From: Gammaproteobacteria bacterium
GTDB taxonomy: Bacteria; Pseudomonadota; Gammaproteobacteria; Pseudomonadales; Pseudomonadaceae
Assembly: GCA_018816095.1 (NCBI GenBank)
Contig: JAHIWP010000006.1
Coordinates: 1-38,608, forward strand
Direction of reading: 5' to 3'
Length of the DNA: 38,608 nucleotides
Part shown: piece after piece, positions 34,647 to 38,492 of the stretch
How the letters are laid out: each line of letters begins with the position of its first letter
Position numbering within the stretch: position 1 is the stretch's first letter
Notes under the pieces: model-generated
What the model was told of the DNA's origin: nothing
Databases searched by the model: none
The model's input: the letters and a program-made list of their open reading frames with translations, nothing else
Program-made: the position numbers and the translations under genes

Positions 34647-35342
34647 TCAGTTGTTTTCCGTAGGCTGTTCGGTGGGATCAGCAGGCGCGGGCAGGCTGCC
34701 GGAGTCCTGCATCTGCTGGCGCAGCGCTTCCATGCGCTCGCGCAGTTGGCTCAGGTTGTCGTCTTGCAGATCGTTGAGCTGTTCAACCGGGTCGGCCATC
34801 ACTTCGGGAGTGTAGTTTTGCTGGTTGTCGGCGGCCGAGTGGTGCAGGGGAAAGCGCAGGCTTTCACGCCGGCCATTGCGCATGAGTTCGACATGATCGG
34901 CTGCCACCGCATGCAGGCGCACGCCGCTGCTGATCTCACTGTCGACGCTATAACGTTGAGCGACGCTGCCTTCGCTGCGGATGATCGCGCTGGAGCGTTG
35001 CGGATCCGCATGCACAAAGCTGCCCAGCAGGGTCAGGCGCAAGTTGGTGTCAGGGGCCAGTTGATCGTTGGCGACGTCACTGCCGAATAATTGGCCGATT
35101 TCGGCGGGCAATGCAGTCGCCACTAGTGTGGCTGTGCTGTTGCTGGCCGCCACGGGCGCACGTAACAAGCGCGCCCATTCGGCAGTCTGCCAGGCAAGGC
35201 TGATGCTCATAGCGGCCACCAGCACGAAGCTCACCACGGTGATGGCATGGCGCTGTAACCAGGTATGGGAGCCTAGAAGGGGCAAGGGCGTCACTCCGAA
35301 CTTATTATTATGTGGCGTGGCTTGCGCGCTGATCATAGACAT
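34647..35342 (-). CDS. gspC: Type II secretion inner-membrane protein GspC (XcpP-like)
   Basis: A 231-residue bitopic protein linking the inner-membrane platform to the secretin. Short cytoplasmic N-terminus, one transmembrane segment (about 33-52, AITVVSFVLVAAMSISLAW), then the homology region (HR) domain with AEIGQLFG and LTLLGSFVHADPQRSSAII (about 80-165), which binds the N0 domain of GspD. The C-terminus is a coiled coil (NLSQLRERMEALRQQM) followed by an acidic Pro-rich tail. There is no PDZ domain, as in XcpP. The start is uncertain: ATG at 35342 or 35336, or a GTG at 35369; none has a good ribosome binding site. Two truncated relatives lie upstream on the same strand. Confidence 0.9.
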   Translation of the reverse strand: MSMISAQATPHNNKFGVTPLPLLGSHTWLQRHAITVVSFVLVAAMSISLAWQTAEWARLLRAPVAASNSTATLVATALPAEIGQLFGSDVANDQLAPDTNLRLTLLGSFVHADPQRSSAIIRSEGSVAQRYSVDSEISSGVRLHAVAADHVELMRNGRRESLRFPLHHSAADNQQNYTPEVMADPVEQLNDLQDDNLSQLRERMEALRQQMQDSGSLPAPADPTEQPTENN

Positions 35343-35773
35343 TTGCTGAATGTTTGACAGCCCCCCCACAGGGGGGAGTGTGCCGTTCCATTCAATGTGC
35401 CAACGCCGTTTAACAGTGTGAACAACCTACAACGAATTACAGCGCATAACCCGGCTTTAAGCTGGCGCGTATACCGATGATTAAATTAAAGCCTATGCAA
35501 ATGACTCTGTTGTTTTTGCCGGCCTTCTTGGCCTGGCCGCCCACTATGGCTGAGCAGGCTGGGATTGTTCGCGTGGGCTGAGTGATGGGGAATACCCATA
35601 GCGAGGTCGCGGAGGGATCAGCGTTTGCTGAGTCACCGCTTCGATGACGCGGCACGAGAGGTCGAGGAGGGGATTGCCGATGTCGCTTTTCAGTGTGACA
35701 GGGGGTGAGTAAACGGTTTTCGTGCTTAATCGGTGCGCCGCTTTAGTGGTGTTTGGCTATCGCTGGCCAGCAT
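35343..35773. other. 431-base stretch without an intact gene; leader hairpin and possible gene remnant
   Basis: Next to the gspC start is a C7/G6 inverted repeat at 35361-35376. On the plus strand an ATG at 35477 opens a 34-codon reading frame with a signal-peptide-like start (MTLLFLPAFLAWPPTMAEQA) that stops at 35579. Beyond the stop, plausible peptide continues in other frames: NTHSEVAEGSAFAESPL in the same frame and RFDDAAREVEEGIADVAF in another (35640-35690). This pattern suggests a decayed plus-strand gene of unknown family, but chance cannot be ruled out. The promoter for gspCD probably also lies here. In P. aeruginosa, xcpR would begin on this side. Confidence 0.35.
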
Positions 35774-36250
35774 TTAGCGCTGAGTCTCGGCGAAGTAAAG
35801 GACCTCGCTGCGGTTGTTGCGGGTCAATGTGACGTGTTTTGGGAAGACGCCACTGAGCACGATGCCGTTGCGAATACTTTCGCCCACCCTAATTCGCCGA
35901 GCCGGTTCGTCGGGTTGGCCGATGATTGCGCTAGAGCGGGCTATGTCGGGGTGGGTGAAACTGGCCAGAAGTGTCAGGTGCAAAGGTGTGGTTGGAGGCG
36001 CATTGGCTGCGCTGTTTTTGCCGAATAGCTCAGCTATTTCGGCGTGTTTTAATCTCACGGGCGTCTGTCGTTCGGTTTTAGTTGGCGTTATGGCGACTGG
36101 TTGCAGTAGCTGCCAAAACTGATGGGTCTGGAGGGTCAGGGAGGCGCCACATGCACAGAGCAACAGCGCGCCCATAAGGGTTGTCGCGCGCTTGGCAGTC
36201 GATTGTGAGAGGGATGCGGCAATAGACAATTCAATATTCCTAGTAAACAT
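35774..36250 (-). CDS. Minimal GspC-like protein: membrane anchor plus HR domain only
   Basis: A 158-residue protein. One hydrophobic segment lies at about 22-42 (TTLMGALLLCACGASLTL). The rest is a GspC homology region: AEIAELFG (70-77), LTLLASFTHPDIARSSAII (92-110) and HVTLTRNNRSEVLYF (139-153) line up with AEIGQLFG, LTLLGSFVHADPQRSSAII and HVELMRNGRRESLRF of the full gspC product at 34647. It lacks the coiled coil and acidic tail that end gspC. It could bind the secretin N0 domain without the part of GspC thought to select substrates. ATG at 36250 has a weak ribosome binding site; 65 bases separate it from the gene upstream. Function is inferred from homology only. Confidence 0.78.
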   Translation of the reverse strand: MFTRNIELSIAASLSQSTAKRATTLMGALLLCACGASLTLQTHQFWQLLQPVAITPTKTERQTPVRLKHAEIAELFGKNSAANAPPTTPLHLTLLASFTHPDIARSSAIIGQPDEPARRIRVGESIRNGIVLSGVFPKHVTLTRNNRSEVLYFAETQR

Positions 36251-36315
36251 CTAACACCATCGGCGTGAGCAGGCAGGAACCTGTTATTCCGATGGTTGAG
36301 TTTCTGGTACAGCGT

Positions 36316-36777
36316 TCAATAAGTGGCGCGGCACAGCCCTAGGGCTTGCAGCTCCTCGCGTTGCTCAGGGCTCATGGGGGCTTGTTGTTGCGCTGTGCAC
36401 AAGGCTGGCTGCGGCTCGGGCTGGCTAGGCGGTGGGCGGGTGAACTGTGCTAAGGGGGTATCCAGCGGCTGCAACCGGCCTTGCAATCGGAGCTTGGCCG
36501 TATCGTTGGCATTGAGGCGAACCACAATGTGGTCACGCCCAATGTGCAGCAGTTCGCCGCCTGCCGGTAGCGGCTGGCCTACTGTGAGGCGCTGTGGGGC
36601 GGCGTTACCAAGCTGCAACAGCGCCGAGGAGCGCGCTTGATTGGCGTGCACCATCGTCCCCAGCAACCGCCAGTCAGCCGTGTCGGCCATGTTGGTGAAA
36701 CTGCAACTGAGTAAAACCAGGCCCGTCAGTGCGGGCAGGCTATGTTTGAGCCACAACGCAGTACAGATCAGCTTCAT
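36316..36777 (-). CDS. Second minimal GspC-like HR protein, coupled to the M66 protease gene
   Basis: A 153-residue protein. A hydrophobic segment at about 13-27 (SLPALTGLVLLSCSF) may be an anchor or, with LLSC, a weak lipobox. Residues 36-99 form a shortened HR-like domain: WRLLGTMVHANQARSSALL matches LTLLGSFVHADPQRSSAII of gspC, and HIVVRLNANDTAKLRL matches the end of that domain. The AEIxxLFG part is missing. A Pro-rich linker and a tail with Cys127 and Cys149 follow. The ATG at 36777 overlaps the stop of the protease gene (ATGA), so the two are translationally coupled; a longer frame upstream would lie inside the protease gene. The coupling suggests a job tied to the protease. Confidence 0.75.
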   Translation of the reverse strand: MKLICTALWLKHSLPALTGLVLLSCSFTNMADTADWRLLGTMVHANQARSSALLQLGNAAPQRLTVGQPLPAGGELLHIGRDHIVVRLNANDTAKLRLQGRLQPLDTPLAQFTRPPPSQPEPQPALCTAQQQAPMSPEQREELQALGLCRATY

Positions 36778-38492
36778 TCGCTCTTGGCCAATTGCGCAAT
36801 GGCAGCGATGTTTCTGGCGTGTACCAAAGGCAGCAGCAAGTTGTTGTTGCTGGTCAGGTTGGCCCACTGCTGGTTACCGCCACCGCTGCAGCCATAAGTG
36901 ATTAACTTGCCACGGCCATTGGTGAGATACCCACCAGACAGATCGAGGCAGCGGTCGGCTCGCTTGATTCGCGGCAGTGCACTGATATCCCAACGCTGGT
37001 TTTGCTGGCTGTCATCGCAGCGGGTGAGGCTGACCGAGCCCTGATCGGTCAGGCATTGGCTGAGATCCACGGCGCTGCGAATACGCCCGTTAGCGTCAGT
37101 CAGCCACTGCTCATCCGTACCTGTCGTGCATTGCGCTTTGGCCAATACATACACCGACGCGGCTTCATCCCCCGGCTGGGCTTTTATGCAGTTGCCGTTA
37201 GCCATGCTGAACAACTCGGCTGCAGGCAATAGCGGCTGCGGGTTCAGTTGCAGGTGTTCGAGCAGGTCGCGCAAGGCTTGTTCAGCGTCCGGGTCGCGGG
37301 CGTCGAGTTGGGCTTTGTAGGCGTCCATCCAGCGGTTTAGCCGCAGGCCAAGGGTTTGTTGTTTCTGGTAGCGCTGCACCACGCCGGCCGCTGCAGTCGA
37401 AAGTCCACGCAGGTCGTCGGCGTAGCTGTCGAGTAGCAACTGGGTGGCGTCGGTGAGGCTGATATAGCGCTGATCGACAACCGCTTGCAGGCCCTCCTCA
37501 AGGGTCGGAAGCTCGGCCGCACGCAACGCGTTAAAGCCGTTTTCCTTGCCCACGATAATCACCGGCGCCATGGCTGGCAGGCCTTGAGGGAAGTCGACTC
37601 GGGCCAGTTCCTGAGCAGCGTTGGCGGCCTCTTGGCAAGACAGCGCGGCGGTTAAGGGCTGTTCATCTTGCGCCAGGTTGATATGCAATTTGTTGGCATT
37701 GCTGCCCATACGATTCGGCGCTACGGCAATATCCTGGGTTTTGCCATTGGCAAAGTTCACGCTGACCCAGCAGGTCTTTTGGGTGTCTTGGTTAACCGGG
37801 GCAGGCAAATTGAAGACATGGCCCCAGTTGCCGCGTGCTGGCGGATACAGAATGGCGCTGCCGGTGACCGGGTCATAGCCGCCTAACAAGGTGAACACTT
37901 GAACGCCAAAGCGCCGTGGTACTAGGTAGTTGCCGTCGGCGCTGTTGTACCAAACCTTGCTAGAGTTCGGCACGCGGGCGGTAAACACCTCCATGCGACG
38001 TGTGTTGGCGTCCCATTTACGATAGCCAGTGGGCGAGCTGGCGCTGACCATGGCTTTGTCCATCGCTGGCTGGATTTTGATTTTAGTGCTGTAGCCGGTG
38101 TAGTGGGTATAGCTTGCCAGGCTGCTGGCGTAGTGCCCGCCCGACATCGCATCGGTGCCAAAGCTGTAGGCATCGGCATACACCGGCATGCCGTTCATAC
38201 CGTTGTTTTTGCCACGGTTCCAGTGCAGGTTGGCGCGCATGCGTTTGCGGTAGGCGATATAGCCCCAGCCGCTGTCATGGTGATGCCCCGCCCAAAAATA
38301 ATTATCGCCTTGTTGGCCCGGGTAATGGCCAAGACCATAGTGATGACCAATCTCGTGGCTGAATTCGTTGCCGACCGAACTGAGCAAGGTCAGCTGGCCA
38401 TTGCCGCCGCTCAGGCCGTGGTTACTTGCGCCGTTTATATAAAGCCCGCGAGCATGGTGGATAACCGCCCTGAATTCATAGAATAAGTGCAA
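36774..38492 (-). pseudogene. M66 (StcE-like) metalloprotease with ricin-type lectin domain, 5' end lost at an IS30 insertion
   Basis: The open frame gives 572 residues. Counting from the TTG at 38492, the zinc site HEIGHHYGLGH (46-56) is the HExxHxxGxxH motif in the M66 context NEFSHEIGHHYGLGHYPG. A metzincin-like Met turn is visible as DAMSGG (114-119). Residues about 430-548 form a ricin-B-like domain with three Q-x-W repeats (EQW 461, NQRW 498, NQQW 540). M66 proteins such as StcE have a signal peptide and well over a hundred residues of catalytic domain before HExxH. Here only 45 remain, and just beyond them the DNA becomes an IS30-family end. No Shine-Dalgarno or signal peptide is present. 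The natural substrate would be glycoprotein or mucin by family analogy. Probably exported by type II secretion when intact. Confidence 0.82.

What the first reader, a model, noticed from the sequence alone, without database searches (positions are those of the whole stretch)
34647..38492. Protease gene linked to two stripped-down GspC proteins and a full gspCD pair: candidate cargo-specific secretion module
Three consecutive minus-strand genes encode the GspC homology region, recognisable by the shared LTLLGSF-H-x-x-x-x-RSSAII core. Only the one beside gspD has the coiled-coil tail; the other two are essentially anchor plus HR domain. The one nearest the M66 protease overlaps its stop codon, so its synthesis is tied to the protease. 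Established knowledge: the HR domain of GspC binds the N0 domain of the secretin, and other parts of GspC help choose substrates. Inference: the mini-GspC proteins could be dedicated adaptors, gatekeepers or competitors of GspC that act when this protease is exported. I know of no described system with this layout.
Basis: partly seen in the sequence, partly recalled or inferred. Interest (0 to 1): 0.82.

Follow-up and report, generated by a model that had tools for sequence, protein, structure and literature searches.

The report
Protease cassette with its own secretin
Next to a standard type II secretion gene pair, this Pseudomonas carries the end of a second set of genes that bundles a predicted surface protease with an alternative outer-membrane gate, that gate's short inner-membrane partner, and a small helper protein that follows this protease from species to species.

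The parts
36774..38468 (-). 3' part of the M66 (StcE/TagA-like) metallopeptidase gene with TagA and ricin-B domains; interrupted upstream by an IS30-family element
   Evidence: Pfam M66 61.8, TagA 96.8, Ricin_B 51.2 bits; N-terminal half on contig C48; insertion ends
38469..38608 (.). End of an IS30-family insertion element; frame MTTHYRQLTQGQRY from 38565 on the + strand taken as the transposase start (recalled likeness, too short to search)
   Evidence: 12+10 nt terminal repeat shared with the C48 end; 43-residue transposase C-terminus on C48 matches IS30-family transposases
36316..36777 (-). mini1: signal-peptide-like N-terminus + HR domain + cysteine-pair tail, 153 aa; ATG overlaps the M66 stop
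   Evidence: 14 of 14 Pseudomonas-type M66 loci
35774..36250 (-). mini2 = gspC1: short GspC (TM helix + HR, 5 residues after the HR), inferred partner of secretin gspD1 on contig C48
34647..35369 (-). gspC2 (XcpP-type GspC with long C-terminal tail)
   Evidence: T2SSC 73.9 bits; gspE-M <-> gspC2-gspD2 order in G257 and G317
32693..34642 (-). gspD2 (XcpQ-type secretin, no SPOR hit), next to metZ
   Evidence: TIGR02517 532.5 bits; no SPOR hit; metZ identified as O-succinylhomoserine sulfhydrylase

Best explanation
The window holds the 3' half of a cargo-carrying alternative GspC-GspD cassette placed between the T2SS core genes (gspE-M) and the canonical-type gspC2-gspD2 pair: gspD1 - M66 - mini1 - mini2(gspC1). 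SHOWN: gene order (the C48-C35 junction by inference); family membership; HR fold prediction; mini2 and GspD1 are each sister to the proteins of the same relative in their trees; gspD1...gspC1 holds M66 here and a reprolysin in four other genomes; mini1 is tied to M66. INFERRED: GspD1 and its short GspC (mini2) assemble on the shared E-M platform as a second outlet, as XphA/XqhA is reported to do with Xcp in P. aeruginosa, with the SPOR tail holding the channel in peptidoglycan. INFERRED: mini1 is exported by Sec to the periplasm, binds the M66 lipoprotein through its tail and docks on a secretin N0 domain through its HR, thereby delivering this one substrate. It would be an untethered, substrate-dedicated relative of the GspB/GspC HR. 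Overlapping translation would set its amount to that of the protease.
Against: No binding, secretion or expression data. mini1 is below the Pfam cut-off in the window; Foldseek gives no PDB match at E <= 0.001, and the model's N-terminus and linker are low confidence (pTM 0.50). Short GspC1s do not form one clade. Gene order varies: in L063, L071, L072, L076, L079 and G283 gspC1 is upstream of gspD1, and P. alcaligenes and P. otitidis have gspD1-M66-mini1 with no gspC found in the flank. In this MAG M66 itself is interrupted; in L079 M66, and in L063 gspD1, read as two ORFs. The window's mini1 N-terminus has no clean A-x-A site and could be a lipobox (LLSC) or an uncleaved anchor; no signal-peptide predictor was available.
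Confidence: 0.5

Rival explanations
1. mini1 is a folding or holding chaperone (or periplasmic inhibitor) of M66, like CpaB for CpaA or Lif for lipase; its HR fold was co-opted and does not touch the secretin.
For: T2SS substrates with a dedicated adjacent chaperone are known (PMC4713064, passages). mini1 follows M66 wherever it was seen in Pseudomonas-type loci. The reprolysin cassettes carry a different partner gene upstream, repro_up, which also sits beside a reprolysin in G257 without gspC/D hits.
Against: CpaB is described as TM-anchored with an SRPBCC domain (the Lif fold is recalled); the HR fold is one whose reported role is secretin N0 binding (PMC3169554, PMC9239104, passages). Related M66 proteins in Comamonas, Burkholderiales and Acinetobacter loci have no mini1 beside them, so M66 does not need it to fold in general.
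Confidence: 0.25
2. mini1 is a GspB/PilP-like assembly scaffold for the secretin GspD1 rather than a cargo factor.
Against: mini1 occurs beside M66 without gspD1 in the flank held in 5 of 14 loci and gspD1 occurs without mini1 in the 4 reprolysin cassettes: it follows the cargo, not the secretin. The GspBs of that survey all have a TM segment. Pfam T2SSB appears for only one of the three mini1s scanned, at E 0.02.
Confidence: 0.12
3. mini1 and mini2 are decaying gspC duplicates without a role.
For: Tandem position beside gspC2; low sequence identity; M66 in this MAG is itself interrupted.
Against: mini1 present in 14 of 14 Pseudomonas-type M66 loci with overlap kept in 12; no stops inside the five genus matches; purifying selection; mini2 has relatives in gspD1 cassettes away from gspC2.
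Confidence: 0.05

Closest known systems
XphA/XqhA (PaQa), the alternative GspCD pair of P. aeruginosa Xcp
   Same: A second GspC-GspD pair outside the canonical locus, described as part of a hybrid Xcp system (PMC6567927, passage)
   Different: Here a protease gene lies between the secretin gene and its short gspC; whether gspD1 is the XqhA orthologue could not be tested (no sequence in hand)
GspB/OutB HR scaffold proteins
   Same: Protein with an HR domain that binds the secretin; an engineered signal-peptide form of OutB still binds its secretin (PMC9239104)
   Different: Natural GspBs of that survey have a transmembrane segment and are described beside gspA or gspS; mini1 has no clear anchor, has a Cys-pair tail and travels with a protease gene
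CpaB / lipase foldases (dedicated T2SS chaperones)
   Same: Encoded next to and devoted to one T2SS substrate (PMC4713064, passages)
   Different: Those have an N-terminal TM domain and other folds; mini1 has the GspC HR fold
Legionella LspC + LspD
   Same: GspC without PDZ or coiled coil (PMC12369372, passage) together with a SPOR-bearing secretin (PMC6617341, passage)
   Different: SPOR at the N-terminus of LspD, at the C-terminus of GspD1; no cargo gene is mentioned with it in the passages seen
GspN-dependent export of surface lipoproteins (A. baumannii InvL, Klebsiella PulA)
   Same: T2SS needs an extra protein for lipoprotein substrates; Gly-rich stretch after the lipobox (PMC12802150, abstract, passages and sections 7 and 11)
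   Different: GspN is an AsmA-like protein; none over cut-off in 14 of 14 mini1 genomes
StcE M66 protease and the Etp T2SS of EHEC plasmid pO157
   Same: M66 protease exported by a T2SS (PMC12962677, passages); that stcE lies beside etpC is recalled, not checked
   Different: No extra HR protein is recalled there; that plasmid was not fetched

Membership tests
GspC (mini2) | N-terminal TM helix followed by a periplasmic HR domain | tested here: met
GspC (mini2) | Encoded with, and co-inherited with, a secretin | tested here: met
   Sister relation matches that of GspD1; gspC1 closes gspD1 cassettes in 4 other genomes
GspC (mini2) | C-terminal PDZ or coiled coil | tested here: not met
   5 residues after the HR; not obligatory, LspC also lacks it
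GspC (mini1) | HR domain | tested here: met
GspC (mini1) | Inner-membrane anchor with linker to the HR | tested here: inconclusive
   Short hydrophobic start, A-x-A-like end in the relatives by eye, most of the first 28 residues of the model below pLDDT 50; no signal-peptide predictor available
GspB | TM segment plus HR, beside gspA or gspS | tested here: inconclusive
   Neighbours recognised are M66 and, in some loci, gspD1 or gspC1; gspA and gspS were not searched for; Pfam T2SSB at best E 0.02
GspB | HR binds secretin N0 | not testable with these tools
   Needs complex prediction or binding assay
Alternative GspCD pair (XphA/XqhA type) | Second gspC and gspD in a genome that has another pair | tested here: met
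   G000, G316, G317, G283; G108, G153, G176 have a second, long gspC, its gspD not looked at
Alternative GspCD pair (XphA/XqhA type) | Orthology to xphA/xqhA | not tested
   P. aeruginosa sequences not in hand
Peptidase M66 (StcE/TagA) | M66 domain with HExxHxxGxxH zinc motif and TagA domain | tested here: met
   Window half 61.8 and 96.8 bits with HEIGHHYGLGH; intact relative P0001 158 and 92.7 bits
T2SS surface lipoprotein | Lipobox cysteine followed directly by a Gly/Asp/Ser/Asn-rich stretch | tested here: inconclusive
   CL(D/E/T/P)xGGG in 12 of 12 relatives and in the C48 half: Gly run present but three residues later than in the published Acinetobacter sequences
T2SS surface lipoprotein | Shown at the cell surface, secretin-dependent | not testable with these tools
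   Needs experiment
CpaB/Lif T2SS chaperones | Adjacent to substrate gene and required for its export | tested here: inconclusive
   Adjacency met; requirement needs experiment

The most novel reading that the evidence does not exclude
mini1 is a new kind of T2SS factor: an unanchored periplasmic HR protein, translationally linked to one lipoprotein, that carries this lipoprotein to the secretin in bacteria that lack GspN. All 14 mini1 genomes lack GspN over the family cut-off, while four genomes with a related M66 and no mini1, plus one whose M66 flank is cut off, have GspN. Together with the swappable gspD1...gspC1 frame, cargo, cargo adaptor and outlet would travel as one unit.
Probability: 0.18. 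Interest if true: 0.8.

Novelty: new variant of a known kind. Interest (0 to 1): 0.6.

Why it matters
How a T2SS chooses its substrates, and how it exports lipoproteins, are open questions. Here are genomes in which a substrate, a dedicated HR-fold partner and an alternative secretin/GspC pair are genetically bundled, with the cargo exchanged between genomes. That makes cargo-outlet specificity directly testable with single-gene deletions, and offers a natural HR protein without a clear anchor to compare with GspC and GspB.

Tried and rejected
(1) "Both small genes are the same kind of mini-GspC": rejected by the double dissociation. (2) "mini2 is a decoy of gspC2": its best relative is the GspC1 of a gspD1 cassette. 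But C1 as a whole is not one clade (3 changes), told as a result against a tidy story. (3) The first PDB profile search with four mini1s gave thymidine phosphorylase at E 6e-4, taken as chance; with 13 rows the top hit is OutC HR, E 7.4e-5. (4) Foldseek gave no PDB match at E <= 0.001 for either model, though the top rows are HR or PilP domains. (5) GspN correlation: attractive but confounded. Only 4 of 79 Pseudomonas genomes have GspN over cut-off (8 of 79 at E <= 0.001), so this is one clade contrast, not 14; several mini1 genomes are incomplete MAGs. L080 (distant M66, 25% identity) has neither GspN nor mini1. G737 (L072) has a sub-threshold GspN hit of 17.1 bits. (6) Promoter and terminator scan gave little above shuffles (2 found against a mean of 1.4; 6 against 3.9). 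(7) Of 13 of 398 genus genomes with M66, four carry the lipoprotein type with mini1; the other nine show no gspC, gspD or mini1 beside the hit in the stretch fetched, and one of these nine hits (G257) is a reprolysin. G283 was missed by that M66 search because only the 3' part of its gene is on the contig. (8) mini1 in plasmids: no match. (9) mini1 in 341 genomes of the order: only the own genome at E <= 1e-12. (10) gspD1 tail in the same order sample: 6 of 341 at E <= 1e-12, two of them of this genus; the other four not examined. (11) gspD1 tail in the genus: 31 of 398 at E <= 1e-8; only the 8 genomes at E <= 5e-37 were used, the other 23 not examined. (12) The genome scan reports exactly 80 pattern stretches, which may be a cap, so its 18 loci are a sample, not a census.

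Literature searches for this layout: (open-access library only, top 3-20 rows of each); none of the rows listed showed an HR protein coupled to an M66 gene. Michel et al. 2007 on XphA/XqhA was not held and is known to me only through a review passage and recall. Papers were seen as listings, abstracts or passages; only sections 7 and 11 of PMC12802150 were read whole.
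Full report
WHAT IS IN THE WINDOW. The window is the whole 38,608-base contig C35 of a MAG of 3.53 Mb, 87 contigs, 87% complete. On the minus strand, from about 38468 down: the 3' part of an M66 metallopeptidase gene, mini1, mini2, gspC2, gspD2; then metZ, purF, a cvpA-like gene and folC on the plus strand. 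That xcpPQ sits beside metZ in P. aeruginosa is recalled. The gap mini1-mini2 is 65 bases, mini2-gspC2 404 bases, gspC2-gspD2 4 bases; M66 and mini1 overlap as ATGA.

THE M66 GENE IS INTERRUPTED HERE. The M66 profile matches positions 164-301 on C35 and 4-148 at the start of contig C48. Both contig ends carry the same terminal sequence, 12 + 10 nucleotides around four differing bases. C48 carries 43 residues of a transposase C-terminus: 533 plasmid records match, 492 over at least 80% of it, most (502) below 60% identity; of the six rows listed, five are annotated IS30-family or ISPpu17 transposase (86-91% identity), the best (100%) as hypothetical. Pfam gave no transposase match for this piece. 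Uninterrupted M66 genes exist in relatives; the two halves here were studied apart.

THE REST OF THE LOCUS IS ON C48. Upstream of M66 lies gspD1 (L019:1447-3747), a secretin with a C-terminal SPOR domain (26.5 bits, cut-off 21), and divergent gspE-F-G-H-I-J-K-L (each over its NCBIfam cut-off) and gspM (weak, 44.2 bits). PF11356 finds no gspC on C48; the three matches of this genome are the three in the window. The C48-C35 junction is an inference: complementary M66 halves, insertion ends on both sides, and gspD1 directly upstream of M66-mini1 in relatives (L063, L064, L070, L071, L072, L076, L079).

COMPARATIVE SURVEY. A scan of one genome per species with the M66 alignment gave 18 loci, possibly a capped list. 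Twelve of 18 (L063-L072, L076, L079) carry mini1 directly downstream; they are titled Pseudomonas (P. fluvialis, P. alcaligenes MRY13-0052, P. otitidis, several MAGs and one unnamed species), Stutzerimonas stutzeri and, for L065, only Gammaproteobacteria. Five (Comamonas, a Comamonadaceae MAG, a Burkholderiales MAG, A. baumannii, a distant deltaproteobacterium) do not, and one (L077) is cut off inside M66. With the most upstream sensible start codons, mini1 overlaps the M66 stop in 12 of 14, as ATGA in six; L063 has a 2-base gap and L072 a 40-base gap. In 398 genomes of the genus the mini1 model gives five genomes at E <= 1e-39 (G000, G283, G316, G317, G329) and then drops to 3e-11, taken to be ordinary GspC HRs. 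In 341 genomes of the order only the own genome matches at 1e-12. In 5 loci (L065-L069) M66-mini1 has no gspC/D hit in the flank held (2.3-9.7 kb upstream, contig ends in some; L066 has gspG-M about 1 kb upstream).

MINI2 IS THE GSPC OF GSPD1. The GspC1s read (11, one partial, mini2 included) have 5-32 residues after the HR; the five GspC2s have 64-68. In trees, GspD1 and GspD2 are separate groups (97/96), D1_window is sister to D1_G317 (97/100), mini2 is sister to C1_G317 (98/96), and the nine mini1 rows stand together (92/91); the C1s are not one clade. In G317 that gspC1 closes the order gspD1 - repro_up - reprolysin - gspC1, and M66-mini1 lies on another contig. The same four-gene order, without other gsp genes in the 16 kb fetched, occurs in G108, G153 and G176, each with a second, long gspC elsewhere. 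The gspD1 tail search of 398 genomes gave 8 genomes at E <= 5e-37. In seven of these gspD1 is followed by a metalloprotease gene: M66 in G000, G316, G329 and a reprolysin in G317, G108, G153, G176; in G283 gspD1 and M66 lie at contig ends, compatible with the same order. gspC1 is downstream of the protease in the window and the four reprolysin cassettes, upstream of gspD1 in L063, L071, L072, L076, L079 and G283, and not found in L064 and L070. Each protease has its own partner gene: mini1 with M66, repro_up with reprolysin (also as a pair alone in G257: 578.7 and 108.1 bits).

HOW IT MAY WORK. Reported (seen in passages): GspC HR binds secretin N0, and interface substitutions abolish interaction and secretion (PMC3169554). 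GspB HR binds the same N0 domain more tightly than GspC HR in vitro; OutB with a cleavable signal peptide instead of its TM segment still binds its secretin (PMC9239104). Dedicated T2SS chaperones sit next to their substrate genes (PMC4713064). GspN is needed for lipoprotein substrates in A. baumannii and Klebsiella (PMC12802150). GspC can lack PDZ and coiled coil (Legionella; PMC12369372), and the Legionella secretin carries a SPOR domain (PMC6617341). From this, the most economical reading is that gspD1/gspC1 is a second outlet on the shared E-M platform and that mini1 is a periplasmic, M66-dedicated partner that uses its HR to reach the secretin. The M66 proteins look like lipoproteins with a Gly-rich stretch after CLxx. 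GspN (PF01203) is absent over cut-off in 14 of 14 mini1 genomes and present in five genomes with a related M66 (L073, L074, L075, L078 without mini1; L077 cut off; the N-terminus of L074's M66 is not seen). This suggests mini1 as a stand-in for GspN, but the genus as a whole mostly lacks GspN (4 of 79 over cut-off), so it is a single clade contrast.

LIMITS. No interaction, localisation or secretion data. The window's own M66 is interrupted. Several genomes are incomplete MAGs. XqhA orthology was not tested.

Noticed in passing
window 38469-38608 and contig C48 start (L019:1-122): An IS30-family element (ISPpu17-like transposase end) interrupts the M66 gene and explains why both contigs end there.
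   Followed up: yes
L057:4254-9858, L144:5026-10831, L145:5446-11235, L146:5900-11491: Free-standing cassette gspD1 - repro_up - reprolysin - short gspC in four Pseudomonas genomes, without other gsp genes in the stretch fetched.
   Followed up: partly
L057:6794-7459 and L023:9356-10069: repro_up, a 220-237 aa protein with a hydrophobic N-terminus; no Pfam hit for the L057 copy. Just upstream of the reprolysin gene in all five loci seen: a candidate dedicated partner of that protease.
   Followed up: partly
L064 and L070 (P. alcaligenes, P. otitidis): gspD1-M66-mini1 without any gspC found within the flank; a partner GspC would have to be encoded elsewhere.
   Followed up: partly
L063:7733-9970 and L079:2677-5462: gspD1 of P. 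fluvialis (L063) and M66 of L079 each read as two ORFs: a frameshift or an assembly error.
   Followed up: no
L111:3800-5341: In G283 an ORF downstream of mini1 matches the C-terminal part of gspD1 (second gspD1 tail hit in that genome), possibly a gspD1 remnant or a fusion.
   Followed up: no
L019, L022 and L072 gspD1 proteins: SPOR domain at the C-terminus of a T2SS secretin, paired with a short GspC in several loci, paralleling Legionella LspD/LspC, where the SPOR domain is N-terminal.
   Followed up: partly
M66 N-termini of L063-L072, L076, L079 against L073, L075, L077, L078: Pseudomonas-type M66 proteins have CL(D/E/T/P)x before the Gly run; the Comamonas, Burkholderiales, L077 and Acinetobacter ones have CGG(G) directly at the lipobox.
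   Followed up: partly
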